Origin: Alligator mississippiensis
Taxonomy: Eukaryota > Chordata > Crocodylia > Alligatoridae
DNA: 64,000 nt
Direction: 5' to 3'
Assembly: GCF_030867095.1 (NCBI RefSeq)
Contig: NC_081828.1
Span: forward strand, 217,093,978-217,157,977
Positions within the stretch are counted from its first letter, which is position 1, and each line of letters opens with the position of its first letter. Of this stretch, positions 3,278-38,511 are shown piece by piece. The notes under the pieces are model-generated. The model did no database searches. It worked only from the letters and a program-made list of their open reading frames with translations, and was not told the DNA's origin. Made by a program: the position numbers and the translations under genes.

Positions 3278-5681
3278 CTAGCCCAGAAAACTCAAGACGT
3301 AGGAGGCCCCCAGAGCTGTATTTCGTCCTATTTTCCTCCAGTTCACCCTTTTGACGAGCTGAGGCTGGAGACGGGGAGAAGCCAAAGGGTAAGCAAGCCC
3401 ATGCAGCCCCTCACTGAAGGACGTCCCACCCAGGGAAGTGCCTTCTCCCTCCCTGCCCTGTCCTTGTTCCCCTGGATGCCCGTGCAAGGGGCTTGCTGGA
3501 GGCGGTCCTGCCCCGCACACCTGCAGGCTCAGCAGACAGGCAGGCAGAGAGGGGGAGCGTTGCACGGGGTTTACACCCTAGTCCTGGGGTCCATCCAGCA
3601 CCGTGAACGGCAGGCCAGGATCTCCCAGGGGGAACCGCACAACCCTGCCCAGCCGAGCCCTACTCACCCCCTGACCCGCGTCCTCGCAGTTGGCCGTGAC
3701 GATGGGGGGCTTCTTCTCCGCGGAGTAGATCCCGGTGCAGTCTTTGACCAGCTGCAGAGGGGAGATGAAACACCTCCGCTGTCAGCCTCCGGGACCCCCG
3801 TACCCAGCCTCCCCCCACACACCTGCCTCCCACGGGGCGCACGTCACAGCCCCAGCGGGACACAGGCCCTGCCTCCCGAGCGGGCTCCCACCAGCGCTGT
3901 ACCGGGCGCTGGCACCCGATGGGCACGTCGCTGCCGCCCCGTCGGTGGGTACCGCAGGGCAGGGTGTGCTCCATGCGCACAGCACAGGCAGGGCTGGTGT
4001 GCGGAGAGGGCTGCGTGTGCAAGTCTAGACATAGGGACGGAGCGGGAGCAAGGTCCAGGCTGCGTTGAAAGCAGGAGGCTCGCGGTGTCGATCGTACCCA
4101 GAGAGCTGCCATCGTGGCGTGTTGTGTCCAGGACTGGTCGGGTACAGGAGCTCTGGTGCCCGATATCTGCCCTGACCTGCCGTTGTGTCCCGTGGCGCTG
4201 CAGTGTCCCCGCACTGTGTAATGGGGTGGGGAGAGCCCCCGCTGTCTCTCTCCCCCAGCCGGCGTCCCTAAGCTCCCTGGGGACGGCCCCGCACCCTTCC
4301 TGCCTGGCTGCACCCCCGGTGCCCTGATCTGTGGGGCCTCAGCCACGGACAGCAAGGTGCCACGTCCCCCTGCCCCTGGTGCCATGTACACTCTGTGCCC
4401 GCGGGCAGGGCTCTGGCTGGAGCAATGCACCCGGTTGCACTGGGATCGGAGACACTGAGTGTGCATATTCCCTCTTGCTCGCACACACACACGTCTCCTA
4501 CCGGGTCTGCTCCTCAGTGTGGGGCCCTTCTCTCCGTCGTCCTTGGTACAAGGCCTACACCCGTACACCCTCCCGGTCACCTCCCTGCGTGGCCGTGTGC
4601 TGTACGGGATGCACGAGTCAGTGCCAACGTCCCCGTGCAGCCGCAGACTCTTACCCCCTTGTCCTTGAACGGACACTGGCCGATGTCGCGTTTCTCCGAC
4701 AGCAGGCACTCCGTCTCCTTGATGGAAAACTTCAGCGGCTGCACAGGCTGGGAGGCCAGGTCCTGGGGGGGATTCAAGGAAAACACCATTTAAATGGTCC
4801 CAGCTGTTAGGAGAGCAGCAGACGGTCAACCGGGAGGTATTCCTGACTGTCTCACAAGACAAGGATGAGGGCTCACAGCATGGAAGTAGCACAGAGCCAG
4901 CTTAAAACTCAGAAAAGGATTTTTTCTTCACATCGAGCATCATTAAAAGTGTGGGGCTCGCTGCCACCAGATGTGGGGGCAGCTGAGAGGTGAGCCAGCT
5001 TCGCAAAGGGCCTGGACACGTGCCTGGAGGAAAGGGGCATCAGGAGCTGTTGGGCAGGGAGCGAGGGGCACGGCCTCCAAATCAGGACTTCCTAGACCTT
5101 AAACGCTGGAGGCTGCAAGGGAGAGAGGAACAGGGGAAAACCCTGCTCAGCCCCGGGTCGCTCTCCCTGGCAGCGTCCGCACGCGGGTGCTGTAAGATGC
5201 TCCTCCAGGCAGGACCCCAGGATGCGCACTGCCCCTGGAAGAAGGGGGTGCCGAGGTCTCCCCCTCCCCACACCGGGCCCTGGGACCGGGAGCGTCTCTG
5301 AGCAGGACGCAGCCTCCCCGCAGGCAAAGAGTCCGGCCAAAGTGCTGCCGCGTGTGCACCCGTTGGTGCGCAGACACGGCCAGGCTGCACCGCGCAGACG
5401 GGACCCGGGGCGCAGCAGGGAGCCAGGGCCCCGGTCCTGCCCAGCATCCAGCCGTGTGCGGGGGCACTCACCCATTGGGGCTGGGGCTCAGCCTCCAGCA
5501 GGCGGTAGGCCTGGGGCAGGCCCGACTCCTGGTTGTAGGTGTTGACGGCCACGGCCAGAGCCTCCTGGTAGCTGTTCGGGGCTGGGGCTGGGGCTGGGGC
5601 TGCGGCCGGGGGCGCGGGCAGGGCCACGGCCACGGCCACGGCCGCCCCCAGCACCAGCAGCGCTCTCCGGCAGGGCTGCAT
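3278..5681 (-). CDS. CATH: Cathelicidin copy 2 (subfamily I), amphipathic Gly-ended peptide
   Basis: Four exons encode a precursor of 160 residues: 5472-5681 (70 aa), 4655-4762 (36), 3668-3751 (28) and 3278-3358 (26 plus stop). All junctions are GT-AG in phase 0. Exon 1 starts MQPCRRALLVLG and carries an Ala/Val signal peptide and an Ala/Pro linker before the cathelin start NSYQEALAVAVNTYNQ. Exons 2 and 3 carry the four cathelin cysteines (TEC, GQC, KDC, ANC). Exon 4 reads LV then KRVNWRKIGRNTALGASY and ends VLSFLG. Cleavage after Val, as elastase does for known cathelicidins, would release a cationic peptide of 24 residues. The final Gly could serve for C-terminal amidation. The peptide should act by membrane disruption (inferred from the family). 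Exon 4 and the 3' UTR differ from those of all other copies here. Introns 1 and 2 are nearly identical to those of copy 5. Confidence 0.93.
4845..5100 (+). repeat. CR1-like LINE 3' segment in intron 1 of copy 2
   Basis: The sequence has the typical LINE C-terminal coding region and tail, with TTAAAACTCAGAAAAGGATT followed by GCTCGCTGCCACCAGATGTG. It lies antisense to the gene. The same insertion, with the same ends, sits in intron 1 of copy 5 (about 23175-23425), so it predates the duplication of these introns. Confidence 0.6.
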
Positions 5682-6660: not shown

Positions 6661-7203
6661 GGAGACACGCTGTGCATGCAGACTGGGCACACAGACCAGG
6701 CACACAGCTCCAGACATAGGCAGTGACACGCTGGGCACGCAGACTGGGCACACAGACTGGGCACACAGGCGGAGACACGCTGGGCACACAGACCGGGCAC
6801 ACAGACTGAGCACACAGACAGAGACACACTGGGCACACAGACCAGGCACACAGACTGAGCACACAGACAGAGACACACTGGGCACGCAGACTGGGCACAC
6901 AGACTGGGCACACAGGCGGAGACATGCTGGGCACACAGACTGGGCACACATACTGAACACACAGACAGAGACACGCTGAGCACACAGACTGGGCACACAG
7001 ACAGAGACACACTGGGCACTCAGACTGGGCACACAGACTGAGCACACAGACAGACACACGCTGGGCACACAGACCGGGCACACAGACTGAGCACACAGAC
7101 AGAGACACAGTGGGCACTCAGACTGGGCACACAGACTGAGCACACAGACAGACACACGCTGGGCACACAGACCAGGGACGCAGACCGGGCACACAGATGG
7201 AGT
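6661..7203 (+). repeat. Minisatellite upstream of copy 2
   Basis: The tract is a tandem array of about 540 bp built from units such as GGGCACACAGACTG and GGAGACACGCTG. It lies 1.0-1.5 kb upstream of the copy 2 start. Read on the minus strand it gives long artificial Cys/Val/Pro open frames, which are not genes. A related array of about 390 bp sits at the same place upstream of copy 6 (28753-29143). A short one of about 90 bp lies upstream of copy 5. Confidence 0.9.
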
Positions 7204-7837
7204 TAGGCTCTCCGGGACACTGGCCTGGGAGGCAGGGCCAGGCATAACAGCCTTGAACCTGGGCTGTCCCTCGCAGGGGGTGTCCCCAGCACCGAGCTGC
7301 CGTGGACTGTGCCCCCCTCCCCGGTGCCGACCGTTGCTTGTGCCCTGGGCCCACGAAACCTCTCCTTGCACGTCTCCTTCACACTCATGTGTTTCTGCTC
7401 AGCATTTCCGTTTGGTGAACCCACGTTGTCCAAAGGAAAAGCCTTTTCATTCCCAGCTCCCTCTGCTCATCAGACATGGTTTCCCAACACGGGCAAACGG
7501 GCACAACGTGGTTCTGCCCCAGGCAACGGCTCAGACTGGTACGGCCCCCGGGAGGGGGAGGACGGGGGTTACTGGTTTGGAGACGAGGAGGCCGAGAGGG
7601 GATTCACTCGCAGGCTCCAAACACCTGCAGGGAAGCTCCCAGGATGCTGGTGACAGAGCATCGCCTGCAGTCACGGGGACGGGAGGAGGAGGAATAACAG
7701 ACGGCAGCACGGGAAATGCAGGACGGATTTCGGGTGCCCTCTCCAGCGCAAGGGTGTCCAGCAGTGGAGCACGTTCCCCGGGGGCCCGCGGGACTGGTGT
7801 CCCTGGACGGTAGACAGAGACGTGGCTGGGGGGCTTG

Positions 7838-7905
7838 GACGGGGCTGACGCTGCCTGGAGCAGGGCTGGACTAGACGCGGCCTCGGGAGATCCCTTCCAG
7901 CCCAG
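7838..7905 (+). repeat. CR1 LINE 3' tail
   Basis: This short sense tail contains GGGCTGGACTAGACGCGGCC and GATCCCTTCCAGCCCAGCCC. Its mirror copy is at about 28050-28125, carried along in the inverted duplication. Confidence 0.7.
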
Positions 7906-9245
7906 CCCTTGCCGCAGTCGCGATGGGAGGAGGGAAGGAAGGAAGCCTGAACACGCATTGCCCTGGCACTGTCTCTCTCCTTACGCTGACCATTGCCTAG
8001 ACGCCTTCTTGCCCAGGCGGGGAAGAGGCGGCTGCCCTGGCACGCACTCTTTCTTAAGCCCCTTCGCTGCCCACCCGGGCGGGCAGTTCAGCTCAGCTAC
8101 GGGCTTGGGGTGCAGATGGGAGGACTGGGCTCTGTCCCCAACACGTCCATGTCCCCGTGCGGGGCCTGGACACCTATTTCTGTGCCATCCCGGGGCAGGG
8201 AGCAAGGGGCTGCGTCCCACCCTGCCCTTGGGAAGGAGCCCGAGTGCCAGAAACGCTCGTGACCCACGGGCTTGACCTTGTCATTCAGGGGATGCTCGAG
8301 TCTGGCAGTGTCCAGTGCACGTCCTGGGCGCTTGGACACGGCGTGCACTGCTACGTGCACACGAGGCACTTTGCAGTTTGATCCTCTGACGATGCGCCGA
8401 TGGCCCTGTACGGAAATTTTAAAAAATCTTTGCTCCATCCAAAGAGTCAGGTCGTTGCTTTGTCTCCCTTTGGGGTGGTGGGGTCCCTGGAAATGGGTCT
8501 GGCCAAGAGGGCAGGCCCGGGGCCGACTGGGGGACCGTCCATACTTGTTTGCGGGAGAGAAGGGATACACCGGGGGGGCGGGAGGGTTCGGGGTGTGCTG
8601 CGGGAGATGGCCTGCTCAGCAACGACAGCAGTGCCCTGAAGAGAAAAGCCGCTGAGCTTCCTTAAAAATTGGGTTTTTACTTTCCCCGTGTGTGCCCTGG
8701 GTTGCAGAAGTGCTGCGACTTCGGAGCATCCGAGTGGGGAAGTGGTGGGGGTTGCATGTCTCCGGGTTTGATTTCCTGCGCTGTATGAGAAAGGATCAAA
8801 TGGGAGGGTTTGCAGGGGTGGGGAGGGGTGGCTACCAGCAATGGGGGGCGGGGAGGGGCAGAGCGGCACCCCGATAGAGCTGGGCTGTTCTCATTACAAC
8901 CGGTGTTATCGTGGGGTGTTATCATCCTGCTGTCATTCAGGGATAGCACTCCAGTGTCGTGATGCTAACGAGGCAGGTAATCACCACTCCTATGCACTCA
9001 GGGGAGAAGTGCTAGCGAGAAGGACCATGATCCACCTTGGACAAACCAGTTGAAACCCCGGCCCCCCAAAGTGACCGTTGTAAAATTGCTGCCGTGCCCC
9101 CAAATTGACCAAGCCGCTCCATTTCTCGGGGAAGCACCTGAAAATGCTTCACTGATCGGCAGAAAGGTTGTGGCAGGGACAGCACGCCCCATGGACCCCG
9201 GGGTCCAAGCCCCCACATCCCGATGCCTGGATGTGGGGTTTATGC

Positions 9246-10254
9246 TGGCTGCTGTGCAGAGGAGAGGATTTTTGGTACTGCAACCAAAAGCTAACCTGTC
9301 TCACCCCAGGTCCCCAAAGTTGACAAAGCTCAGACATTTCTAGGGGAGACGACCTGAATATGCATTGGTGAGCAGGAGAAAACTGGGGCAGGGGAAGGAG
9401 GCTAACCCAAAGGCTCCCGAAAAAACTAACCCAACACAAATTACTTTGCAGAACTGCCCCTGCTGTGCTTAGGAGACGGTCGGGAGGGTACAGGCGTTAC
9501 GAGGGGCCCTCTAGCGTCTTGTACTAGTAAGAGCACATTAACCAAGGATGAGTGTTAAACGTGTGATGTGCAAAATAGTAACAGGCATCCTCGTGGTACA
9601 CTGCAAGAGTGAAAGACACCCAGAGATTATCTTCAGGTAGGAAAAGCCAACGCTGTGTACAAGCGCCCCGTGAGCGGTGCGTGAACGCCCTGCAGGGGCT
9701 GTGCCAGGCGCCACTGGATCAATGGCCCAGCTGCCGGGACTCGTGCAGAGGATTGCTTTTATCTCACGGTCACTGCAGCAGCACCAGAGCCCTGATGCCG
9801 GCGTCCAGGGCCAACGTGATCCAGGCTGGCGGGTAACAGGCCAACCCCAGGGACAAGGGCTGAGCTGGAGACAGCAGAGGACACGTCTCCTGGGCAATAG
9901 CCATGAAGAGATGCATCGTCCATGGATGCAGCAGTCAATGTGCACAGGTGTCCTGCCTGGGCTGGTTGCTGGAGGCCTCAGACACGACGGGAAAGGATCA
10001 CCTGGGTCCCTGAGTCCCATCACCGGTGTCACGGGGCACATGTGAAGTGCAAAGAAGTCCCCACTCTGCACCCAAAGCCCCTGTCCTGCCCCGTGGGGAC
10101 AGGGACCTTCAGTACAATCAAGCCCAGAGATGTCCAGCACTGCAGGGTTGCAAAGGGACAGACCGAGAACCCAGCACAAGGTCTCTCATATGATGGCAAG
10201 CAAAAGCCTCGGCGCTCATGCAGGACAAGCAGCCCTGCGTGGTGCTTCTCATGC
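9246..10254. other. Spacer between the inverted-duplication edge and copy 3
   Basis: At 9290-9440 there is a diverged second copy of the unit at 9045-9200 (shared words around CCCCAAAGT and a GGGGA-rich stretch), so the spacer grew by local duplication. Positions 9690-9850 belong to a repeat family also found at 13800-14320, 26350-26700, 39560-39930 and 41320-41460. Positions 9900-10254 match, in reverse, the downstream flank of copy 6 (32818-33180). I see no gene here. Confidence 0.55.
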
Positions 10255-16210: not shown

Positions 16211-18763
16211 TCAGGCTATCCTCTCATGGCCTTTTCTTCCACCATGCGCGATGTGGGAGAACCGGCCACGCCTGGACCCAGACCCACGACGTCTCTTGCT
16301 CCTATTCCGCCATCCGGACCTCCTGACGCGGACATGCTAGAGGGGAAGGGACACATGAATGTCACTGCTGCGGGGGCTGCTGCAAACTCCCAGGTCCTGC
16401 AGCCACGATCCGTGGCTGGTGACTCCTCCAGGAGAGCGTCTCCTCCCACAGGAGCATGGGACCGGCCCAGGGGCCACAGCCCAGCCTGGCCTGCTCCCCA
16501 GCCCCCCAGCCAGCACCGTGGAGCTCAGCGCAGGGGATGCAAGACCCCTGAGCAGGGCTGAGCTGCAGCCCTTAGTGACCCCTGTGCAGACACTTGTTCT
16601 TAGCCCCAGGGCGCTGCATGCCCTGTCCCAGCGCCGGGCTGTGCCCAGGCTCAGACAACCCAGCGCGGAGCCGTGGATGGACAGCGCAGCCCTGCCCGTC
16701 CCTTCCTGTCCCCAGGCGCCCGAGCGGGGACCTACCTGCTCCGGGGTCACCGTGTCGCAGGTGATGATGACGGTGGGAGACTCCCGCTCCATGGAGAACA
16801 GCCCCGTGCAGTTCCTGACCAGCTGCGGGGGAGAGAGCAGGTCCCGGGGGCATCAGTGCAGGGGGATGGGAGGATAGAGAGGGAGGGGGGTACAAACCTG
16901 GCCCGTGGGCCGTGTCTAGACCGTGGTGACAGAGCCCACGGGGGGGGGAGGATGGGAGAGCAGGCAAAGTTGGATGGAGAAGTGGGGCTGGAAGGGACCT
17001 CCAGACATCGTCTAGTCCAAGACTGGCCTGAGGCAGGACCAGCCCTGTGCCAGGGGCTGGCTGTGTGGGGTAGGGACGGTCCCGGGGGCTCACAGCAGCT
17101 GGGTGTTCAGGGGGGGGACACTTACCCCGTTGTCCTTGAAGTCACACTCGCTGGCTGGGGGGTCCTGGGCCCGCGGGCACACGGTCTCACGGACCACGAA
17201 CTGCAGCTCCTGACGGGGCTTGGACGTCATGTCCTGAGGGGCATTGGAGCAACGAACGGACTGAGCTCCCCCGGGAGAGCACACGGGTCTGGTCTGCCCC
17301 AGCTCGCACCCAGCGCCAGCCCTGCCCCTTCCCCAGAGATGAAGCGCCCCGCGCCAGGCTGCGCCCGGGCACCTGCCTCTCCATGCCCGGGGCAGCAGGG
17401 CAGCAGCTGCGGAGCTGGCACCTGCCAGGTGCGACCAAAGCGCCTTGCCTTGGCATTCACCTAACAAGAGCTGCCCTGAGCCGGGTCTAGTCTGGAGGGC
17501 CCCAGAGCAGAGTCTGGCCCCGTTTCCAGAAGGAGAAACGCAGCGGGTGAGAAGTGCCCGTGTGATGAGGAGTCTGCGATGCAGAGAAGGCGATGCCGGG
17601 GCAGCAGGAGCCACGCTGACCTCCACGCAACGACTGCCGAGTCCCTTTCCAGCTCCCCAGACTGGTCTTATCCAGGGGTCACAAGGGCGGGCTGTGGAGT
17701 CTGGTCCCCGCATTTGCAAGGGATCATGAGCCACCTGCGCGGGGGACCCTGCAGGGCAGCGTGACAAATCCAGCGCTTGCCGCATTCACATGCACACGCG
17801 CCACGAGTCTGGCACGAGACCTGGGCCAACGCACGGCTGAGTGACGGGTGACTGTGACTGCTGATCTACATATGCAGATTTATGCAAATCCCAAGCCCTT
17901 GTGCTTTTTGCAGAGCTGTCCATGGACAGGCATGAGCTGTGGGAGGGCACGTTGCACCCAAAGTCTTGTCTGCTGTCTCTCCAAGTGACACAGGAGGCCG
18001 TGTGGGTTGGCACCTTGTAGATTAACTCATTCAGACAGTCTCTAAGGTGCCCCCTGCCCTGCCTTCTGCCAGACTCCAGATTAACATGAATTATAACCTC
18101 TCTCCCAATTGTACAGTTGGTTTAAAAAAAGTCATCACCAAAAGCCACTCCCCATCCCCTACTTTTGCTTCTTGTATCAGTGAATCACAGATCATGGGGG
18201 TTGGACGGGACCTCAGGGGTCCCCTAGTGCAACCCCCTGCTCCAAGCAGGACCAGCCCCAACTACACCATCCCAGCCCTTCCCTGGACCATCACACTTGG
18301 GACCCTCCCACCCTCCTACACAGACAGCCAGACACTTTTTGGCTGTATAGTCTATTTTTGCTCCTCCTTAACACATCCAAAGGACAAGCTGGGTTGGCAA
18401 CCTCCCTTGGAGACTGGACAGGCAGCCAGCTCCGTGTGCTGACCCTCAGCACTGTGGGAAGGAAGAGTTGCTTTCGAGGTGCTTGGAGCTGGATGTCCTG
18501 AATTGTACGTCCTAGGCTAATCCTGATGCCTGCCTTGCACTGCGGTCAGTCGCCAGGACAGGAGTGAGCTGGTGACTTACCCATGCAGGCTGGGGGTCAG
18601 CGCGGAGGAGCCGGAAGGCATGGTCTATGCCCGGCCCCTGGTTGTAGAAGTCAACAGCCAAGGACACGGCCTCTTCATAGCTCAGCGTCTTGTGCTGGGA
18701 ACCCAAGGCTACAGCCACGAAGGTGGCCAAGCCCAACAGCACCCCCCAGCCCCAGCGCCCCAT
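16211..18763 (-). CDS. CATH: Cathelicidin copy 4 (subfamily II), very Arg-rich peptide
   Basis: Four exons encode 167 residues: 18581-18763 (61 aa), 17126-17233 (36), 16736-16822 (29) and 16211-16336 (41 plus stop). Splice sites are GT-AG, phase 0. The signal peptide MGRWGWGVLLGLATFVAVAL ends before QHKTLSYEEAVSLAVDFYNQ, the cathelin start. The four cathelin cysteines are present (TVC, SEC, RNC, ITC). Exon 4 reads HV then RVRRSGWRNRSKRRRGSG, SRRGRFSHIAHGGRK and ends ERIA. Cutting after the first Val would give 39 residues with about 15 Arg/Lys against one Glu. It is not obviously helical, so binding to nucleic acid or polyanions is as plausible as membrane lysis (inference). Compared with copy 7 the frame ends early at TGA. 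A relic of the longer tail (AAAGGACATGTGGGGTAG) survives just downstream, so this copy has lost about 22 residues. Confidence 0.92.
18175..18440 (-). repeat. CR1 LINE 3' end in intron 1 of copy 4
   Basis: It is nearly identical to the elements at 12140-12420 and, in reverse, 36165-36430. Next to it (about 18030-18080) lies a fragment with GTCTCTAAGGTGCCCCCTGC that recurs reversed at 36530-36580. This belongs to another interspersed repeat I cannot name. Confidence 0.8.
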
Positions 18764-20350: not shown

Positions 20351-22150
20351 CACAGCCCTGCCACAGCCCAGGTAATGGGTGCTTGCAGGAACAGGTTCTT
20401 TGCAGAGGCTGCCCACACTGTGCCCACCCAGGACAGGCAGCAATGGGCATTTGCAGGTGACCACAGAGGCAACCAGGGACGTTGAACCCAGAGACCTAGT
20501 GCATCTGAAGGACAGCGGCAGTGCTCATAGGTGGCAGAAGGCCGGGGCTCATCCCCCACTAAACGCAGGGCAGTGAGAAGGGCCACAGGGCAATCAGGGC
20601 ACGGGCTCCAAGCAGCTGGGGAGGGACGTGCGCAGACACAGACAAGCGGTGAGCGCTGCCCACCACAGCAAGTAAGTCTGTCACGGGGAAGGAGCATGGG
20701 GGGCAGATTGAGGCCCCCACAGTGAGGGAGGGAGTGTGCTTGGAGCCAAGGCAGCTCATCCAGGGGCGCAGGGGGGGCTCCCGCTGCTGCGCACACCCCA
20801 GGGGAGGCCTGGGTGGCACGTGCCCCCCAGATCTGTGTGTGGGGCAGAGGCAGGCTGCTGCTGTGGGCTGGGCTCTGCGCCCCGCAGCCACCGCCCAGGG
20901 AGCCCCTTACCCTTAGCAGCACCCTGACCAAGAAGGCATCAACGCAGTGCTCACCGTAAGGAGAGAGAGAGAGCCATTCGGTCTCCTGTGGCCACAGGCA
21001 ATGGTCTGTCACCAGTCTCATTGTAGCCTCCCTGTTTACAGACTGTGATCAAATCCCTTCTCAGTATCCTCATCTCCAGACCCAGTAACCCCAGTCCTCT
21101 CCCTCTCAGGGCTCTGGGCAAGCAGAGATATGCAGCGTCTGAGACATTGCCTGGTGCAGAACCACGTTGCGTCCGTTTGCCTGTGTTGGGAAACCATGTC
21201 TGACAAGCAGAGGGAGCTGGGAACGAAAAGGCTTTTCCTTTGGAAAATGCAGATTCACCAAACTGAAACTTTGAGCAGAAAAAAACATGTGAAGGAGACT
21301 TTCAAGGAGAGGTTTCTTGGGCACAGGGCACAACTGATGGTCAGCACCAGGGAGGGGGACACAGTCCGCTGCAGCTCGGTGCTGGGGATGCCACCTGTGT
21401 GGGACAGGTCGGGGTTCAAGGCCTGTTATGCCCAGTCCTGCCTCCCAGGCCAGTGTCCAGTGGGAGCATGTTGCAGTTTGTGTGCCTGGTCTGTGTGCCC
21501 AGCGTGTCTCTGCCTGTGTGCCCGGTCTGTGCGCCCAGAGTGTCTCCGTCTGTGTCCGGAGCTCTTCCACGTGCATTGCCTCTGGCAGCTCCCGTCCTTC
21601 CCCTGGTTCACCAGCTTTCATGTCTCTCTGGGACCCCTCCAGCAACTCGTCTGCTCAAGAAAAATTAACATGACATGTAGAGTCTGACCATTTGGCCAGG
21701 ATCTCATCCCATCACAGGTCCCCGCTCACATTTAATCTGCATCATGCTAGTACCTTCGTGAAACCGCCCCGAAGTATCATGTCAAATGCCTGATAGAAAT
21801 GTGCTCTAGTGTCTGTTTGATCTTTGTCTGCCAGCCTTGTCACCTTCTTCAAAAGGATCTCGTGTGAGTTTGGAAACCTCAGTGTCTAGAGAGCCCCCCC
21901 CATCATCGGTCGTTATTACTCCCCCAATTCATGCTCTGTAGCCATCAGGACCTTTGGGCCAGGACCCTTCTCTGCCCGTCAGAAAAATCATTGCATCCCT
22001 CTTCCCCCTAGCACAGGCTGAGCTTTCTCCCAACCTGGGTCTTCCTCACAGTTCCCAGAGCCGCTGGATAGCAGCTGTAATCCTCCAGGCAGGTCAGCAG
22101 GCAGCTCTTGCATGAATTAGAGATAAGCTCTCTGGACCCAGTGATGAACC
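20351..22150. other. Central spacer before copy 5
   Basis: Positions 20380-20520 belong to the repeat family also seen at 14460-14560 and 33380-33480. Positions 20560-21000 show nothing I recognise. From about 21080 the sequence matches the upstream region of copies 2 and 6, with a shortened minisatellite at 21476-21566 and deletions relative to both. I see no exon. Confidence 0.5.
21476..21566 (+). repeat. Short minisatellite upstream of copy 5
   Basis: It has the same units as the arrays upstream of copies 2 and 6 (CTGTGTGCCCAGCGTGTCTC) but only about 90 bp. It lies about 1.0-1.1 kb before the start codon. Confidence 0.8.
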
Positions 22151-22535
22151 CTGTCTAACGTGGGTCGCTGCTGGTTAGCCCGCTCTGGAGTGACCACGGC
22201 CAAGGACAGTGATTCACCACCACCCTGGGGTCCAATTTGCACTTTAGTTGCTCCCAAACCCAGAGCAGAAATCTTGACGGGAAGCTCCTGGGTGCATCCC
22301 ATCAGCAGAGCGACGGCTGTTTGTGGCAGGGGATCGGGCCAACGTCTGTCCCAAGCCACGGGGCCCCGAGCCCCCGACCAGGGGCTGTTTTGCAACTGGG
22401 ACCAAGAGTTTCAGCAACTCCTCTCCAAAACGATCATCCCCAACTGCCCGGCTCTGGGGCAGCTCCCGCAGCAGGAAGCACAGGAGCCAACGGCTGGGGG
22501 AGGACCACCGCCTGCGCCCCCGGGCACTGCCTGGG

Positions 22536-22543
22536 GATAAAAG
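22536..22543 (+). promoter_or_regulatory. TATA box of cathelicidin copy 5
   Basis: GATAAAAG lies 59 bp before the ATG in a block (22160-22594) conserved upstream of copies 2 and 6. A transcription start about 25-30 bp further on would leave a very short 5' UTR. Confidence 0.75.
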
Positions 22544-22594
22544 GGGCTGCCCGGGCGCAGCGCAGCACCCTGGCAGCCGAAGAGCACCCGCAGC

Positions 22595-25079
22595 ATGCAG
22601 CCCTGCCGGACAGCGCTGCTGGTGCTGGGGGTGGCCGTGGCCGTGGCCGTGGCCGTGGCCCTGCCCGCGCCCCTGGCCCCAGCCCCAGCCCCAGCCCCAA
22701 GCAGCTACCAGGAGGCTCTGGCCGCGGCCGTCAACACCTACAACCAGGAGTCGGGCCTGCCCCAGGCCTACCGCCTGCTGGAAGCTGAGCCCCAGCCCCA
22801 ATGGGTGAGTGCCCCCGCATGCGGCTGGATGCTGGGCAGGACCGGGGCCCTGGCTCCCTGCTGCGCCCCGGGTCCCGTCTGCGCGGTGCAGCCTGGCCGT
22901 GTCTGCGCACCGGCGGGTGCACGCGCGGCAGCACTTTGGCCAGACTCTTTCCCCAACGGGAGGCTGCGTCCTGCTCAGACACGCTCCCGGTCCCAGGGGT
23001 GGGGAGGGGGAGACCTCGGCACCCCCTTCTTCCAGGGGCAGCGCGCATCCTGGGGTCCTGCCTGGAGGAGCATCTTACAGCACCCGCGTGCGGACGCTGC
23101 CAGGGAGAGCGACCCGGGGCTGAGCAGGGTTTTCCCCTGTTCCTCTCTCCCTTGCAGCCTCCAGCATTTAAGGTCTAGGAAGTCCTGATTTGGAGGCCGT
23201 GCCCCTCGCTCCCTGCCCAACAGCTCCTGATGCCCCTTTCCTCCAGGCACGTGTCCAGGCCCTTTGCGAAGCTGGCTCACCTCTCAGCTGCCCCCACATC
23301 TGGTGGCAGCGAGCCCCACACTTTTAATGATGCTCGATGTGAAGAAAAAATCCTTTTCTGAGTTTTAAGCTGGCTCTGTGCTACTTCCATGCTGTGAGCC
23401 CTCATCCTTGTCTTGTGAGACAGTCAGGAATACCTCCCGGTTGACCGTCTGCTGCTCTCCTAACAGCTGGGACCATTTAAATGGTGTTTTCCTTGAATCC
23501 CCCCCAGGACCTGGCCTCCCAGCCTGTGCAGCCGCTGAAGTTTTCCATCAAGGAGACGGAGTGCCTGCTGTCGGAGAAACGCGACATCGGCCAGTGTCCG
23601 TTCAAGGACAAGGGGGTAAGAGTCTGCGGCTGCACGGGGACGTCGGCACTGACTCGTGCATCCCGTACAGCACACGGCCACGCAGGGAGGTGACCGGGAG
23701 GGTGTACGGGTGTAGGCCTTGTACCAAGGACGACGGAGAGAAGGGCCCCGCACTGAGGAGCAGACCCGGTAGGAGACGTGTGTGTGTGCGAGCAAGAGGG
23801 AATATGCACACTCAGTGTCTCCGATCCCAGTGCAACCGGGTGCATTGCTCCAGCCAGAGCCCTGCCCGCGGGCACAGAGTGTATGTGGCACCAGGGGCAG
23901 GGGGACGTGGCGCCTTGCTGTCCGTGGCTGAGGCCCCACAGATCAGGGCACCGGGGGTGCAGCCAGGCAGGAAGGGTGCGGGGCCGTCCCCAGGGAGCTT
24001 AGGGACGCCGGCTGGGGGAGAGAGACAGCGGGGGCTCTCCCCACCCCATTACACAGTGCGGGGACACTGCAGCGCCACAGGACACAACGGCAGGTCAGGG
24101 CAGATATCGGGCACCAGAGCTCCTGTACCCGACCAGTCCTGGACACAACACGCCACGATGGCGGCTCTCTGGGTACGATCGACACCGCGAGCCTCCTGCT
24201 TTCAACGCAGCCTGGACCTTGCTCCCGCTCCGTCCCTATGTCTAGACTTGCACACGCAGCCCTCTCCGCACACCAGCCCTGCCTGTGCTGTGCGCATGGA
24301 GCACACCCTGCCCTGCGGTACCCACCGACGGGGCGGCAGCGACGTGCCCATCAGGTGCCAGCGCCCGGTACAGCGCTGGTGGGAGCCTGCTCGGGAGGCA
24401 GGGCCCGTGTCCCGCTGGGGCTGTGACGTGCGCCCCGTGGGAGGCAGGTGTGTGGGGGGAGGCTGGGTACAGGGGTCCCGGAGGCTGACAGCGGAGGTGT
24501 TTCATCTCCCCTCTGCAGCTGGTCAAAGACTGCACCGGGATCTACTCCGTGGAGAAGAAGCCCCCCATCGTCACGGCCAAGTGCGAGGACGCGGGTCAGG
24601 GGGTGAGTGATGCTGGCAGCTCCTGTCCAGTCCCCGCTGGGCCAGGTCAGGCTGGGGGGTCCCCCCCTTCATGGCCCTTCCCGGTGCTGGACTGTCCCCA
24701 GGATGAGGCTGCAGCCTCCAGCCGCCCCAGACTGGAGCAAGTGCCTGCACGGGGGTCACTAAGGGCTGCAGCCGAGCCCTGCTGCAAAGGTGTCGCATCC
24801 CTTGCACTGAGCTCCACGGTGCTGGCCGGGGGGGCTGGGGAGCAGGCCATGCTGGGCCGTGGCCCATGGGATGGGTCCATGCTACCGCGGCAGGAGACGC
24901 TCTCCTGGAGGAGTCACCAGCGATAAATCGCGGTCGTAGGACCTGCGGGTTTGTAGCAGCCCCCGTGGCAGTGACACTCACGTGCCCCGTTCCCTCTCAT
25001 CCAGGTCAAACCGAGAATGAGACTATGGGTACCCCCCATGCCATGGCATTGGCCTTTCAACAGGGTCAGGCTGGGGTAG
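22595..25079 (+). CDS. CATH: Cathelicidin copy 5 (subfamily I), Trp/Pro-rich peptide
   Basis: Four exons encode 158 residues: 22595-22804 (70 aa), 23508-23615 (36), 24519-24602 (28) and 25005-25079 (24 plus stop). All introns are GT-AG, phase 0. Exon 1 starts MQPCRTALLVLG and has a VAVAVAVAVA signal core and an Ala/Pro linker before SSYQEALAAAVNTYNQESG. Exon 2 is identical in protein to that of copy 2. The four cathelin cysteines are present. Exon 4 reads V, then KPRMRLWVPPMPWHWPFN, RVRLG. Release after Val would give 23 residues with three Trp, five Pro, six Arg/Lys and no acidic residue, ending in Gly (possible amide). The composition recalls indolicidin and tritrpticin, mammalian Trp/Pro-rich cathelicidin peptides, although I see no alignable similarity. 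The splice acceptor CATCCAG falls where copies 3, 4, 6 and 7 encode His-Val (CACGTC). The 5' part matches copy 2 and the 3' part copy 6, so the gene is a mosaic. Confidence 0.9.
23175..23425 (-). repeat. CR1-like LINE segment in intron 1 of copy 5
   Basis: This is the reverse complement of the element in intron 1 of copy 2 (4845-5100), at the same position in the gene. Confidence 0.6.
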
Positions 25080-25561
25080 GGGGAGAGGCCGGGCATCCCC
25101 CACCAGCTTCTGCCGCTCGCGCTTCGCTGCCGCCTGCTCCTCCCTGCTGCTTCGTGGCTTGTAGACGACCCCGCTGCCACAAGGACGTCGAAACGGCCCC
25201 GTGGACCACGCTGGGCTGGGGTCACATCCTGTCTCCACCAGTGCTCAGCACCACTTCTTCTCCCAGAAAGCAGAAGGGGGAGAAGGAGCAAACGTGGCCT
25301 CGTTTCCCACCTCCTCCACTTCCTGGCACCTGGCTGCGCCCGTTCCTACCCCAGGGCTTGGTGCAGCGCCGGGTGGTTTGCGGGGAGCTCGGCCAAGGGC
25401 TGGTGGATGCAGTTGCTTAGAGGGAAACTGGCCCCTATGGCCCCTGGCCAGCAGCACAGGGTGCCGTGCCCGGGCACAGACCGGGAAGACATGGTGCATG
25501 GCACTGTGCACGTGTTGTGTCCTTGTCTCTGCAGTCCCCGGGGCACAGACACCCCTGCCTG

Positions 25562-25567
25562 AATAAA
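25562..25567 (+). terminator. Poly(A) signal of cathelicidin copy 5
   Basis: AATAAAGCATGAGAAGCACC, the signal shared with copies 3, 6 and 7, lies 483 bp after the stop codon. Confidence 0.85.
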
Positions 25568-25599
25568 GCATGAGAAGCACCACGCAGAGTGTCTTGTCC

Positions 25600-26708
25600 T
25601 GCATGAATGTGGAGGCTTTTGCTCATCGTCGTCTCCACGAGAGACCTCGGGTTGGGTCCGGGGGTCGTTTATGGACCTGTCGTGTCTCCCAGCACGATGC
25701 CATCCTGCCCCAGGGAGGGAGAACAGGGCACAAGTGCTGGGGGTGCTCCATCTGTCCCCATGGGACCCTGCAGTGTTGGTTGTACCTGGGCTGGGTTGTA
25801 CTGAAGGTCCCCATCCCCACGGCAGGGCAGGGGCTTTGGCTGCGGGGAGGGATGGAGTGGGGGCTCCTTTGCACTTCACGGCCGCCTGGTGAGACCGGTA
25901 ACAGGACTCAGGGACCCAGGTGATCCTTTCCCCGGGTGACTAGCGTCCTCCAGCACCTGGCTCAGGCAGGACACCTGTGTAAGGGGAGCCCGCTGCTACA
26001 TTCATGGATGATGCCCATTGCCCAGAACAGCTGGAGATGTTTCCTCTGGCGTCTCCAGCCCAGCAGTGGCAGGGAGTAGGGGATCGATCCCTGGAGGTAT
26101 CTGGTGCGATGCTCTCCCTGCACAGCATCCACTCCTGCTGGTGTCGGGGACACGGTGCTGAGCGAGTCGGGCCATTGGTGTGACCCAGTCTGGCACTGCT
26201 GATGTCCTTTGCATGCTCACACCGGGTCTCTGGGTGCAACACCCTTGGTTGCTTCTGCAGTCACCTGCGAATGCCCATTGCTGCCCCCCTGGGTGGGCAC
26301 GGTGCAGATCCACAGTCTCCTCCATCACGTACAGCACACGGGCACTCAGGGAGCGTTGAGTAACCAAGGGGTCCGCGGGGTCGGGCCTGTTACCTGCCAG
26401 CCTGGATCACGTTGACCCTGCATGCTGGCATCATGGTTTGGGCTCTCCCAGGCCTCCTCCACCTGCAGCACAGGAGCGGGCAGAGAGCAACGGGACGAGA
26501 AACCCAGCAGAGATCAGAGGGTCGACCGGGACTTGTTCCCTGTCCCCGGCTCCAGCCCACCTGCCGCCTGCTCCCGTGAGCACCTGGCTTTCAGCCCAAA
26601 ACGTGCGGACATAATTGAGCCAGGGACTAGCAGAAACATGTGGCGCTGGTGCAGTGACCGTGAGATAAAACCAACCCTCTGCACGAGTCCCGGTGGCCGG
26701 GCCATTGA
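25600..26708. other. Spacer downstream of copy 5
   Basis: The first 300 bases match the downstream flanks of copies 6 and 7. Positions 25930-26345 (reverse orientation) and 26350-26700 are the two unclassified repeat families also present around 13.8-14.8 kb, 33 kb and 39.5 kb. At 26700-26709 the second family is joined directly to the edge of the inverted duplication, in the middle of a sequence that is continuous at 13830-13850. This marks a rearrangement breakpoint. Confidence 0.5.
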
Positions 26709-30175: not shown

Positions 30176-32067
30176 ATGCAGCCCTGCCGGAGAGCGCTGC
30201 TGGTGCTGGGGGTGGCCGTGGCTGTGGCCATGGCCGTGGCCCTGCCCGCGCCCCTGGCCCCAGCCCCAGCCCCAGCCCCGAGCAGCTACCAGGAGGCTCT
30301 GGCCGCGGCCGTCAACACCTACAACCAGGAGTCGGGCCTGCCCCAGGCCTACCGCCTGCTGGAGGCTGAGCCCCAGCCCCAATGGGTGAGTGCCCCCGCA
30401 CACGGCTGGATGCTGGGCAGGACCGGGGCCCTGGCTCCCTGCTGCGCCCCGGGTCCCATCTGCGCGGTGCAGCCTGGCCGTGTCTGCGCACCGACGGGTG
30501 CACGCACGGCAGCACTTTGGCCGGACTCTTTCCCCAACGGGAGGCTGCGTCCTGCTCAGAGACGCTCCCGGTCCCAGGGCCCGGTGTGGGGAGGGGGAGA
30601 CCTCGGCACCCCCTTCTTCCAGGGGCAGCGCGCATCCCGGGGTCCTGCCTGGAGGAGGGTTATCCTCCACATTAGCCAAGCCTGGGCAAGGGAAGCATTG
30701 CTGTCCCATTCGAGGGGGCAAGCACCATCGGGATAAACTCGCGCTATGCCAAGGTCTGCTCTAAGGCATTGCTGGACTAACATCCTCTGCCCTGAGACCT
30801 GCCCTGATTCCCGCAGTGGTCTGGGCGACTTGGGTTCGGCAGTATGAAGCTGCCCCCAAACCTCCAGCCACATCCTGAGATCTTGGCTGCGGGCAGGAGA
30901 AATGCCCGGGGCGCGGGGAGTTTGAGCATGCCTCTGCTCAAGGAGCTGCCATGGTTATCGGGGGTCTGGAGGGCACCAAAACGGACAGGAAAGGCTGAAA
31001 TGAGTCCCAGAGCGGTCTGTGTCCTGGCTCCATGGATGGTGTTGTGTCCTTGAACCCCCCTAGGACCTGTCCTCCCAGCCCGCGCAGCCGCTGAAGTTTT
31101 CCATCAAGGAGACGGAGTGCCTGGTGTCGGAGAAACGCGACGTCAGCCAGTGTCCGTTCAAGGACAAGGGGGTGAGAGTCTGCGGCTGCACGGGGACGTT
31201 TCCACGGGCGCCCCAGGAGCCCCCAGTCTGTACCAACCTGACCCTGGGGTCACTTTCCTGCCTGACCCCAAGCGTGGCAACTGGTCTGACCCTGAGCAAA
31301 GGGCCCAGACCCTTTAGCCAGGACCCTTGTCCTGGGACGGGCAGGGGGAGCCCCGGGGGGGCAGGCAGCCTGCAGGAGAGAGGCGCAGAGGACTTGGGGA
31401 GACTTTGGGGGTCACTGTGTCCAGGTCCCTGGTGTTACAGGGTACCACACACAGGATTTCTCCCCTCTGCAGCTGGTCAAAGACTGCACCGGGATCTACT
31501 CTGCGGAGAAGAAGCCCTCCGTCGTCACGGCCAAGTGCGAGGATGCGGGTCAGGGGGTGAGTGATGCTGGCAGCTCCTGTCCGGTCCCCGCTGGGCCAGG
31601 TCAGGCTGGGGGGTCCCCCCCTTCATGGCCCTTCCCGGTGCTGGACTGTCCCCAGGACGAGGCTGCAGCCTCCAGCCGCCCCAGACTGGAGCAAGTGTCT
31701 GCACAGGGGTCACTAAGGGCCGCAGCCGAGCCCTGCTACAGAGGTGTCGCATCCCCTGTGCTGAGCTCCACCATGCTGGCCGGGGGGCTGGGGAGCAGGC
31801 CGTGCTGGGCCGTGGACCCCGGGATGGGCCCGTGCTATGGCGGGAGGAGACGCTCTCCTGGAGGAGTCACCAGCCACAGATCGTGGCCGTAGGACCTGCG
31901 AGTTTGCAACGGCCCCCAGCGGCAGCAACACTCATGTGTCCCTTTCCATCTAGATCATCCACGTCAGGTCAAGAAGGAGATTCTGCAAGGGACGGCCAAA
32001 GCCTTGTTCCTGGCTCGGCCACATGACCTCCCTCTCATTACCTGCACACAAAGGACCCGTGGAGTAG
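30176..32067 (+). CDS. CATH: Cathelicidin copy 6 (subfamily I), Arg-rich peptide with one Cys pair
   Basis: Four exons encode 171 residues: 30176-30385 (70 aa), 31064-31171 (36), 31473-31556 (28) and 31954-32067 (37 plus stop). Introns are GT-AG, phase 0. Intron 2 is 301 bp against 903 bp in copies 2 and 5. The signal peptide and cathelin start match copy 5. Exon 2 differs slightly from copies 2 and 5 (DLSSQPAQ, LVSEKRDVSQ). Cathelin cysteines are TEC, SQC, KDC and AKC. Exon 4 reads IIHV, then RSRRRFCKGRPKPCSWLG, and ends AHKGPVE. Cutting after Val leaves 33 residues with a strongly basic N-terminus and two cysteines six residues apart, suitable for one small disulfide loop as in bactenecin-type cathelicidins (inference). 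The last residues KGPV align with the ends of copies 3 (KKPVG) and 7 (KGHVG). Confidence 0.92.
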
Positions 32068-35836: not shown

Positions 35837-38511
35837 ATGGGGCGCTGGGGCTGGGGGGTGCTGCTGGGCTTGGCCATGCTAGTGGCATCCGCCTCGGCTT
35901 CTCAGCACAAGATGCTGAGCTATGAAGAGGCCGTGTCCTTGGCTGTCGACTTCTACAACCAGGAGCCAGGCATAGACCATGCCTTCCGGCTCCTCCGCAC
36001 TGACCCCCAGCCTGCATGGGTAAGTCACCAGCTCGCTCCTGTCCTGGCGACTGACCGCAGTGCAAGGCAGGCATCAGGATTAGCCTAGGACGTCCAATTC
36101 AGGACATCCAGCTCCAAGCACCTCAAAAGCAACTCTTCCCTCCCACAGCGCTGAGGGTCAGCACACGGAGCTGGCTGCCTGTCCAGTCTCCAGGGGAGGT
36201 TGCCAACCCAGCTTGTCCTTTGGATGTGTTAAGGAGGAGCAAAAATAGGCAATACAGCCAAAAAGTGTCTGGCTGTCTGTGTAGGAGGGTGGGAGGGTCC
36301 CAAGTGTGATGGTCCAGGGAAGGGCTGGGATGGTGTAGTTGGGGCTGGTCCTGCTTGGAGCAGGGCGTTGCACTAGGGGACCCCTGAGGTCCCGTCCAAC
36401 CCCCGTGATCTGTGATTCACTGATACAAGAAGCAAGGCGGGGGGGTGTATTTTGGTGATAAATATTATTAAACCAATTGTACAATTAGGAGAGAGGTCGT
36501 TAGCCATGTTAGTCTGAAGTCTGGCAGAAGGCAGGGCAGGGGGCACCTTAGAGACTAGGTCTGAACGAGTTAGTCTAGAAGGCACCACCCCACACTGCCT
36601 TCTGCGTCACTGGCAGAGACAGCAGACAAGCCTTTGGGTGCAAGGTGCCCTGCCCTCCCTCAGCTCATGCCTGTCCATGGACAGCTGTGCAAAAAGCACA
36701 AGGCTTTGGGATTCAAACCCTGTTTTTTTTAATACTTAATCATGCAAAAAGCAGGTGCATCGAGTACTTTGCATAAATCTGCATATGTAGATCAGCAGTC
36801 GCAGTCACCCGTCACTCAGCCGTGCGTTGGCCCAGGTCTCGTGCCAGACTCGTGGCGCGTGTGCATGTGAATGCGGCGAGCGCTGGATTTGTCACGCTGC
36901 CCTGCAGGGTCCCCCGCGCAGGTGGCTCATGATCCCTTGCAAATGCGGGGACCAGACTCCACAGCCCGCCCTTGTGACCCCTGGATAAGACCAGTCTGGG
37001 GAGCTGGAAAGGGACTCGGCAGTCGTTGCGTGGAGGTCAGCGTGGCTCCTGCTGCCCCGGCATCGCCTTCTCTGCATCGCAGACTCCTCATCACACGGGC
37101 ACTTCTCACCCGCTGTGTTTCTCCTTCTGGAAACGGGGCCAGACTCTGCTCTGGGGCCCTCCAGACTAGACCCGGCTCAGGGCAGCTCTTGTTAGGTGAA
37201 TGCCAAGGCAAGGCGCTTTGGTCGCACCTGGCAGGTGCCAGCTCCGCAGCTGCTGCCCTGCTGCCCCGGGCATGGAGAGGCAGGTGCCCGGGCGCAGCCT
37301 GGCGCGGGGCGCTTCATCTCTGGGGAAGGGGCAGGGCTGGCGCTGGGTGCGGGCTGGGGCAGACCAGACCCGTGTGCTCTCCCGGGGGAGCTCAGTCCGT
37401 TCGTTGCTCCAATGCCCCTCAGGACATGACGTCCAAGCCCCGTCAGGAGCTGCAGTTCGTGGTCCGTGAGACCGTGTGCCCGCGGGCCCAGGACCCCCCA
37501 GCCAGCGAGTGTGACTTCAAGGACAACGGGGTAAGTGTCCCCCCCCTGAACACCCAGCTGCTGTGAGCCCCCGGGACCGTCCCTACCCCACACAGCCAGC
37601 CCCTGGCACAGGGCTGGTCCTGCCTCAGGCCAGTCTTGGACTAGACGATGTCTGGAGGTCCCTTCCAGCCCCACTTCTCCATCCAACTTTGTCTGCTCTC
37701 CCATCCTCCCCCCCCCGTGGGCTCTGTCACCACGGTCTAGACACGGCCCACGGGCCAGGTTTGTACCCCCCTCCCTCTCTATCCTCCCATCCCCCTGCAC
37801 TGATGCCCCCGGGACCTGCTCTCTCCCCCGCAGCTGGTCAGGAACTGCACGGGGCTGTTCTCCATGGAGCGGGAGTCTCCCACCGTCATCATCACCTGCG
37901 ACACGGTGACCCCGGAGCAGGTAGGTCCCCGCTCGGGCGCCTGGGGACAGGAAGGGACGGGCAGGGCTGCGCTGTCCATCCACGGCTCCGCGCTGGGTTG
38001 TCTGAGCCTGGGCACAGCCCGGCGCTGGGACAGGGCATGCAGCGCCCTGGGGCTAAGAGCAAGTGTCTGCACAGGGGTCACTAAGGGCTGCAGCTCAGCC
38101 CTGCTCAGGGGTCTTGCATCCCCTGCGCTGAGCTCCACGGTGCTGGCTGGGGGGCTGGGGAGCAGGCTGGGCCGGGCCGTGGCCCCTGAGATGGGCCTGC
38201 ATTACTGCGGGAGGAGACACCCTCCCACAGGAGTCACCTGCCACAGATCATGGCCACGGGACCTGGGAATTTGCAACAGCCCCCGCGGCCGTGACACTCC
38301 CGTGTCCCTTTCCCTGTAGCACGTCCGCGTCACGAGGTCCGAACGGAGGAATGGCCATAAGAGACGTCGTGGATCTGGCTCCAGGCGTGGCCAGTACTCC
38401 AGCACCAAGCATGGTGGAAGAAAACGTCCCAGGAAACGCCCTGGGTCTGGCTCCCGGCTCGGCCATGAGACCCCCCACGTGGCCCCCATAGACAAAGGAC
38501 ACGTGGGGTAG
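35837..38511 (+). CDS. CATH: Cathelicidin copy 7 (subfamily II), long Arg-rich peptide
   Basis: Four exons encode 189 residues: 35837-36019 (61 aa), 37423-37530 (36), 37834-37920 (29) and 38320-38511 (63 plus stop). Introns are GT-AG, phase 0. The signal peptide MGRWGWGVLLGLAMLVASAS is followed by QHKMLSYEEAVSLAVDFYNQ. Exons 2 and 3 are nearly identical to those of copy 4, with all four cathelin cysteines. Exon 4 starts HV, then RVTRSERRNGHKRRRGSG, SRRGQYSSTKHGGRKRPRK, a second PGSGSRLG, and ends IDKGHVG. About 19 Arg/Lys face three acidic residues. The GSGSR motif occurs twice, so the exon has an internal duplication that copy 4 lacks or lost. The mature peptide would be about 61 residues, long for a cathelicidin, with possible extra processing at the basic pairs. 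An in-frame open stretch upstream of the ATG has no signal character, so the start was set at the Met before the hydrophobic core. Confidence 0.93.
36165..36430 (+). repeat. CR1 LINE 3' end in intron 1 of copy 7
   Basis: It matches the intron 1 elements of copies 3 and 4. The flanking fragment at 36500-36590 (ATGTTAGTCTGAAGTCTGGC, GCACCTTAGAGACTAG) is a separate interspersed repeat also found in copy 4. Confidence 0.8.

What the first reader, a model, noticed from the sequence alone, without database searches (positions are those of the whole stretch)
25005..25079. Trp/Pro-rich peptide exon in copy 5
The last exon encodes a 23-residue cationic peptide with three Trp, five Pro and a final Gly, with no acidic residues. 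This resembles the composition of mammalian indolicidin-type cathelicidin peptides and differs from every other copy here. It could be an independent invention of that peptide class in reptiles.
Basis: partly seen in the sequence, partly recalled or inferred. Interest (0 to 1): 0.8.

Follow-up and report, generated by a model that had tools for sequence, protein, structure and literature searches.

The report
Alligator immune-peptide gene, Trp/Pro-rich tip
One gene in an alligator's cluster of antibiotic-peptide (cathelicidin) genes looks intact and would make a short, positively charged peptide rich in proline with three tryptophans, similar in make-up to the cow and pig peptides indolicidin and tritrpticin but apparently evolved separately.

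Summary
Window 25005-25079 is the last exon of an apparently intact four-exon cathelicidin gene (c5, 22595-25079, +). It encodes VKPRMRLWVPPMPWHWPFNRVRLG*: 23 residues after the predicted elastase-site Val, with 3 Trp, 5 Pro, no acid and a final Gly. The cluster, probably alligatorid, also holds matches of As-CATH4 to As-CATH8.

New here: c5 and its neighbour c6 look like fusion genes. The front (exons 1-3, start of intron 3) is CATH7/8-type; most of intron 3, exon 4 and the 3' flank are of another paralogue type (c4/c7). In an in-frame alignment two of c5's three Trp codons face c6's two Cys codons. Exon 4 is the least identical segment between c5 and c6.

Among 134 published cathelicidin peptides tested, the four best matches are Trp/Pro-rich artiodactyl ones, but 82 of 1000 shuffles match as well, so the likeness is largely compositional. 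Trp content (3/23) is modest. A separate crocodilian origin is the best reading.

Novelty is uncertain: orthologues of c4-c7 may include As-CATH1-3, whose sequences I could not see and which a review calls weakly active in vitro. Expression, amidation and activity are untested.

The parts
22537..22542 (+). TATA-like ATAAAA 58 bp upstream of the ATG
   Evidence: the 350 bp upstream of the ATG are 347/350 identical to those of c6
22595..22804 (+). c5 exon 1: hydrophobic signal-like start, proline/alanine linker and start of the cathelin domain (70 codons, donor gtgagt)
   Evidence: 205/210 identical to c6 exon 1
23508..23615 (+). c5 exon 2: cathelin domain, 36 codons, two of the four cathelin Cys
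   Evidence: identical to c2 exon 2, 108/108
24519..24602 (+). c5 exon 3: cathelin domain, 28 codons, other two cathelin Cys
24706..24735 (+). inferred fusion zone in intron 3: left of it resembles c1 (CATH8-type), right of it resembles c7/c4; the zone itself matches neither above background
   Evidence: 60-bp windows: c1 36-41 for the first 120 bp of the intron, then c7 24-43 and c4 36-47 from base 121 to 390 (shuffle mean 12.5, max 16.5); 30-bp windows place the switch
25005..25079 (+). c5 exon 4: VKPRMRLWVPPMPWHWPFNRVRLG*; predicted mature peptide 23 aa after Val, or 22 aa amide if the final Gly is used
   Evidence: acceptor; cleavage and amidation inferred
25562..25567 (+). AATAAA polyadenylation signal-like hexamer
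31954..32067 (+). c6 exon 4 (closest paralogue): IIHV|RSRRRFCKGRPKPCSWLGHMTSLSLPAHKGPVE*, two Cys
38320..38511 (+). c7 exon 4: HVRV|TRSERRNGHKRRRGSGSRRGQYSSTKHGG...HVG*
16211..16336 (-). c4 exon 4: HVRV|RRSGWRNRSKRRRGSGSRRGRFSHIAHGGRKGHERIA*
3278..3358 (-). c2 exon 4: LV|KRVNWRKIGRNTALGASYVLSFLG*, 23/24 identical to published As-CATH7; exact first base of the exon not settled

Best explanation
c5 is a working cathelicidin gene of an alligatorid. Its precursor carries a cathelin pro-domain and is cut after Val (inferred, elastase-type) to free KPRMRLWVPPMPWHWPFNRVRLG. The final Gly is probably turned into a C-terminal amide (inferred). The peptide is too proline-broken for a long helix and probably acts in an extended or turn form: arginines bind anionic surfaces and the Trp/Pro core (WVPPMPWHWPF) sits at the membrane interface, possibly with DNA binding, as described for indolicidin-type peptides (inferred by analogy). 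From sequence comparison: c5 and c6 carry the mark of a fusion in intron 3 between a CATH7/8-type front and a c4/c7-type back end, and exon 4 then diverged strongly, with Trp codons in c5 where c6 has Cys. The Trp/Pro make-up therefore most likely arose within the crocodilian cluster and not by descent shared with cow or pig peptides.
For: Cathelicidin domain E 2.2e-23; PDB sequence matches to human and pig cathelin domains, E 2.1e-12 and 7.6e-12/8e-12. Four exons in phase 0, sound splice signals, TATA-like box and AATAAA. A Val immediately before the mature part, also in c2, c4, c6 and c7; PMC9686568 (passages) predicts most crocodylian mature peptides to start after Val. From that Val to the stop c5 has 75 nt and c6 105 nt, a difference of 30, with no stop inside. 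Fusion signature in intron 3 of both c5 and c6 (finer for c5). Exon 4 is the least identical c5/c6 segment: 52/72 with 45 gap columns against 359/396 in intron 3 and 276/297 in the first 300 bp downstream; Fisher p 6.6e-6 against those flanks, 0.0013 against the nearest 200 + 60 bp only. Top four of 134 published peptides are Trp/Pro-rich artiodactyl ones.
Against: No transcript or peptide data. 82 of 1000 shuffles of the peptide reach the best-over-table score. Trp fraction is modest. A review (PMC7481365, passages) says As-CATH1-3 had limited in vitro activity; c5 may be an orthologue of one of these. Codon changes nonsynonymous:synonymous in exon 4 (17:3) do not differ significantly from exons 1-3 (10:6), p 0.15. 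Introns 1 and 2 of c5 and c6 are also well diverged (509/599 with 183 gap columns; 255/297 with 610 gap columns), as are the last 200 bp of intron 3 (166/194). The in-frame c5/c6 alignment of a diverged 25-codon stretch is not unique, and MAFFT puts the two TAG stops one column apart; a one-base gap after the stop is needed to make them the same codon.
Confidence: 0.6

Rival explanations
1. c5 is expressed but its peptide kills poorly; it mainly modulates host immune cells, or does little, like As-CATH1-3.
For: As-CATH4 to 8 have matches elsewhere in the cluster, so by elimination As-CATH1-3 should correspond to some of c4-c7. A review reports limited in vitro activity for As-CATH1-3, that As-CATH2-6 recruited immune cells and protected mice to varying degrees, and that As-CATH1 did not protect (PMC7481365 passages).
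Against: As-CATH1-3 sequences were not seen, so the match is only inferred. Trp/Pro-rich mammalian peptides of similar make-up are active: buCATHL4C has MICs of 0.2-1.5 uM in the complete rows shown of Table 2 (PMC4684500 passages).
Confidence: 0.22
2. c5 exon 4 is a decaying exon. After loss of the ancestral TAG acceptor it drifted, and the Trp/Pro make-up is a by-product of GC-rich sequence.
For: The TAG acceptor present in c6, c7 and c4 is missing from c5 by a 4-bp gap. Exon 4 differs greatly from c6. W/P-rich frames occur by chance here (4 of 398). The cluster also holds c1 with a stop in exon 1.
Against: A good new CAG acceptor lies in frame nearby, the Val is kept, the frame from Val to stop is open with a length difference divisible by three, and exons 1-3 are open.
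Confidence: 0.13
3. Exon 3 is joined to another, undetected last exon, or the product is used only as the cathelin domain.
For: Splicing was not observed; the acceptor is newly formed relative to the paralogues.
Against: 25005 is the acceptor in the position homologous to the exon 4 acceptors of c6, c7 and c4, with the highest pyrimidine count of these four (15 of 17 against 13-14).
Confidence: 0.05

Closest known systems
buCATHL4C / buCATHL4D (water buffalo, CATHL4 = indolicidin locus)
   Same: Cathelicidin exon 4 peptide, Arg-rich ends around a PW.WP core, final Gly in the listed sequence; best table matches (scores 48 and 43)
   Different: 18 residues with 5 Trp; from artiodactyl CATHL4 genes; likeness not beyond composition (82 of 1000 shuffles over the table; 79 and 384 of 5000 for the single peptides)
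Tritrpticin (pig)
   Same: PWWWPFLR against PWHWPFNR, 6 of 8 identical; 152 of 20000 shuffles reach the score
   Different: 13 residues, 3 Trp in a row, different gene and lineage
Indolicidin (cow)
   Same: Cationic, no acid, Trp and Pro; an amide (PMC6017362 passages)
   Different: 13 residues, 5 Trp; score reached by 1514 of 20000 shuffles
As-CATH7 / As-CATH8 (Chinese alligator)
   Same: Same pro-domain type as c5 (c2 and c1 of this cluster); Gly end
   Different: Published as helical by modelling and by CD in membrane mimics (PMC9686568 passages); different exon 4
As-CATH1-3 (Chinese alligator)
   Same: Probably orthologues of some of c4-c7, by elimination
   Different: Sequences not seen; whether one equals c5's peptide is unknown
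c6 exon 4 of this window
   Same: Closest paralogue; same front half, same fusion mark, same Val
   Different: Two Cys facing two of c5's Trp; 10 residues longer after the Val

Membership tests
Cathelicidins | Cathelin-like pro-domain | tested here: met
   PF00666, E 2.2e-23, 82.9 bits against a cut-off of 21
Cathelicidins | Four conserved Cys in the pro-domain | tested here: met
   Two in exon 2 (ETEC, QCPF), two in exon 3 (KDC, AKC), read from the sequence
Cathelicidins | Four exons, mature peptide on exon 4 | tested here: met
   splicing itself not observed
Cathelicidins | Signal peptide | tested here: inconclusive
   Hydrophobic N-terminus by eye; no predictor was available
Cathelicidins | Released cationic peptide, expressed in immune tissue | not testable with these tools
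   No transcript or peptide data; K+R 5, D+E 0
Indolicidin/tritrpticin-type Trp/Pro-rich peptides | Cationic, acid-free, Trp and Pro together, PW.WP core | tested here: met
Indolicidin/tritrpticin-type Trp/Pro-rich peptides | Trp as a dominant residue (23-38% in tritrpticin and indolicidin) | tested here: not met
   3/23 = 13%; As-CATH6 has 3/26
Indolicidin/tritrpticin-type Trp/Pro-rich peptides | Common descent with the artiodactyl exon | tested here: inconclusive
   Exon 4 aligns to crocodilian c6 and, less well, c7/c4, which lack this make-up, which speaks against it; no mammalian DNA was compared
Indolicidin/tritrpticin-type Trp/Pro-rich peptides | C-terminal amide | not testable with these tools
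   Final Gly would allow it; inferred only
Indolicidin/tritrpticin-type Trp/Pro-rich peptides | Antimicrobial activity in extended form | not testable with these tools
   none

The most novel reading that the evidence does not exclude
Crocodilians separately invented an indolicidin/tritrpticin-like Trp/Pro host-defence peptide through an exon-shuffled fusion gene, and in one of two sister fusion genes a Trp pair takes the place of the Cys pair that would close a disulfide loop in the other: two solutions to closing the same proline-containing turn.
Probability: 0.33. Interest if true: 0.65.

Novelty: new variant of a known kind. Interest (0 to 1): 0.45.

Why it matters
If the peptide is made, it would be a Trp/Pro-rich cathelicidin outside mammals. 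Of the 29 reptile entries in the review table I read, none has even one Trp together with two Pro (PMC11762488 Table 1, counted; the table omits As-CATH1-3). The cluster also gives a readable example of how cathelicidins make new peptides: the pro-domain half is copied and swapped while the last exon is exchanged through intron 3 and then changes fast. The c5/c6 pair makes a direct test possible, Trp-closed against Cys-closed versions of one ancestral exon.

Tried and rejected
Direct relation to mammalian Trp/Pro peptides was set aside as the less simple reading, because the exon aligns to crocodilian paralogues and the sequence likeness is not beyond composition (82 of 1000 shuffles). It was not tested on mammalian DNA.

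A PDB sequence search with the 24-residue exon gave 0 hits at E up to 10. Rfam over 22000-26000 gave 0 hits at gathering thresholds. A nonsynonymous excess in exon 4 over exons 1-3 was not significant (p 0.15). Published strings: searched held full texts. Searches found 0 papers for pieces of this peptide and of its paralogues. In one search the 20 papers listed of 45 had 0 occurrences of the three pieces of this peptide.

The draft placed the fusion point at 24698-24722; 30-bp windows place it at about 24706-24735. The draft compared 56 of the review table's peptides; one search used 134 of about 163 (my count by eye), including all 29 reptile entries, with the same top four. Left out of the 134: fragments and close variants of LL-37, near-duplicates of Pro-rich mammalian peptides, chicken Cath-B1, several trout and several amphibian entries.

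The c5/c7 exon 4 identity (62/71) comes with 125 gap columns and was not used as evidence.

Full report
What the feature is. Window 25005-25079 (+) is the fourth exon of cathelicidin copy c5, whose exons are 22595-22804, 23508-23615, 24519-24602 and 25005-25079. The junctions are read as phase 0. The exon encodes VKPRMRLWVPPMPWHWPFNRVRLG and a TAG stop. After the Val there are 23 residues: 5 K+R, 1 H, no D/E, 3 W, 5 P and a final G. The spliced protein scores E 2.2e-23 to Pfam Cathelicidins and matches human and pig cathelin structures by sequence at E 2.1e-12 and about 8e-12. A TATA-like hexamer (22537) and an AATAAA (25562) frame the gene.

Where it is. The window lies at C5:217093978-217157977 of a 2.35-Gb genome in which a six-frame Pfam search listed 9 cathelicidin matches at E up to 0.001 (a lower bound), all on C5 between 217.047 and 217.132 Mb. 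In that cluster, published alligator peptides have matches: As-CATH6 26/26, As-CATH7 23/24 (c2), AM-CATH36 35/36 (two genes), As-CATH5 20/22, As-CATH8 16/21 (c1). The animal is therefore probably an alligatorid, and not identical to the published Chinese alligator sequences; I did not identify it further. As-CATH4 to As-CATH8 thus have counterparts outside c4-c7, and by elimination As-CATH1-3 should have theirs among c4, c5, c6 and c7 (the diverged c3 is a lesser candidate). I could not see the As-CATH1-3 sequences (supplementary files not available).

Is the exon real. The acceptor ctctcatccag|GTC has 15 of 17 pyrimidines, 31 AG-free bases upstream and a branch-like CTCAC at -28. In c6, c7 and c4 the acceptor is a TAG that is missing from c5 through a 4-bp gap; c5 would use a CAG a few bases on. 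A Val precedes the mature part in the five window copies with an open exon 4 (c2, c4, c5, c6, c7). PMC9686568 (passages) predicts that most crocodylian mature peptides start after a Val. From Val to stop, c5 and c6 differ in length by 30 nt, a multiple of three. Their TAG stops are one column apart in the MAFFT alignment; by eye a one-base gap after the stop lines them up with fewer mismatches. Chance control: 4 of 398 acceptor-led short frames in the real window pass the composition rule, three of them nested in an unused frame of c2 exon 1; in shuffled sequence 3 of 7181 pass. Composition alone is therefore weak evidence, and the gene context is the strong one.

How it arose. Upstream DNA and exons 1-3 of c5 are close to c6 (upstream 347/350, exon 1 205/210, exon 2 102/108, exon 3 79/84) and to c2 (exon 1 197/204, exon 2 108/108, intron 2 892/903, exon 3 82/84). 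They are less like c7 (exon 2 74/100 with 16 gap columns, exon 3 48/69). Within intron 3 the picture turns: 60-bp windows of c5 match c1 (CATH8-type) at 36-41 over the first 120 bp (c2 only 14-24), and c7 at 24-43 and c4 at 36-47 from base 121 to 390 (last, shorter window 21-23), with a shuffle mean of 12.5 and maximum of 16.5. c6 shows the same switch. In 30-bp windows the c1 match fades by about 24716 and the c7/c4 match begins at about 24729-24735; the bases between match neither. The first 100 bp downstream of c5 also match c7 (76/89 with 22 gap columns). I read c5 and c6 as descendants of one fusion gene with a junction at about 24706-24735.

How exon 4 changed. Between c5 and c6, intron 3 is 359/396 and the first 300 bp downstream 276/297 identical, but exon 4 is 52/72 with 45 gap columns; introns 1 and 2 are 509/599 and 255/297 with large gaps. 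The exon 4 difference is significant against intron 3 plus 300 bp (p 6.6e-6) and against only the nearest 200 + 60 bp (p 0.0013). In an in-frame alignment 17 of 25 aligned codons (stop included) differ in amino acid and 3 are synonymous-only. Exons 1-3 have 10 and 6; the contrast is not significant (p 0.15). In that alignment Trp codons 8 and 15 of c5's exon 4 (TGG, TGG) face Cys codons of c6 (TGC, TGT) and the third Trp faces a Trp. Which state is older is not settled by c7 and c4.

Likeness to mammalian peptides. Among 134 of about 163 peptides of the 2024 review table (PMC11762488 Table 1, parts 1 and 2 of the section read), the best four for c5 are buCATHL4C (48), buCATHL4D (43), tritrpticin (42) and indolicidin (38). 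But 82 of 1000 shuffles of the c5 peptide reach 48 against the best of the table (149 of 2000 with 56 peptides). For single peptides the shuffle counts are 79 (buCATHL4C), 384 (buCATHL4D), 65 (tritrpticin) and 470 (indolicidin) of 5000. So composition, with a PWHWP core, carries the likeness. Trp fraction is 13%, against 38% in indolicidin and 12% in As-CATH6. None of the 29 reptile entries has one Trp together with two Pro.

How it probably works. From sequence: gene structure, frame, composition, fusion mark and strong change of exon 4. Inferred: secretion and storage as a pro-form, cleavage after Val, amidation from the final Gly, and an indolicidin-like extended mode of action at membranes, perhaps with DNA binding. 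The buffalo peptide buCATHL4C with a similar core has low MICs (PMC4684500 passages). Against strong direct killing: a review states that As-CATH1-3 had limited in vitro activity (PMC7481365 passages), and c5 may be an orthologue of one of them.

Novelty. Pieces of the c5 peptide occur in none of the held full texts (0 papers). That does not cover supplementary tables, databases or subscription papers. Santana et al. 2022 report six new A. mississippiensis cathelicidins and mention five A. mississippiensis sequences identical to predicted entries (PMC9686568 section 2.1), so the gene may well be annotated somewhere. I score it as a new variant of a known kind with that caveat.

Noticed in passing
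3662-5288 (-) and 22982-24608 (+): c2 and c5 are 99% alike as an inverted pair from within intron 1 to exon 3, and the high identity stops 6 bases past the exon 3 donor, while DNA further upstream of c2 (6288-6694, 7105-9246) matches DNA upstream of c6. This looks like gene conversion of the pro-domain part with exon 4 left out.
   Followed up: partly
31954-32067: c6 exon 4 encodes a cationic peptide with two Cys (CKGRPKPC); none of the 8 crocodilian peptides in the review table has a Cys (As-CATH1-3 not in the table).
   Followed up: partly
659-462 (-), continuing left of the window to C5 about 217092450: c1, the CATH8-type copy, has a stop codon in its signal-peptide region although matches to exons 2-4 are open; possibly a pseudogene in this individual.
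   Followed up: partly
12734-11517 (-): c3 is a diverged copy of exons 1-3; exon 4 was not looked for.
   Followed up: no
16211-16336 (-): c4 exon 4 ends earlier than c7's, apparently after a one-base difference in the alignment, giving a short Arg-rich peptide with a GRFSHIAHGG stretch.
   Followed up: no
G000 C5:217047493-217048822 (+) and 217057894-217059197 (-): Two CATH4-type genes in opposite orientation encode the same GLFKKLRRKIKKGFKKIFKRLPPVGVGVSIPLAGKR peptide, one residue from AM-CATH36.
   Followed up: no
43960-44320 and 45160-45540; 46450-47000: By eye: an inverted repeat pair and a repeat that looks like CR1 (recalled, not searched) beside the cluster.
   Followed up: no
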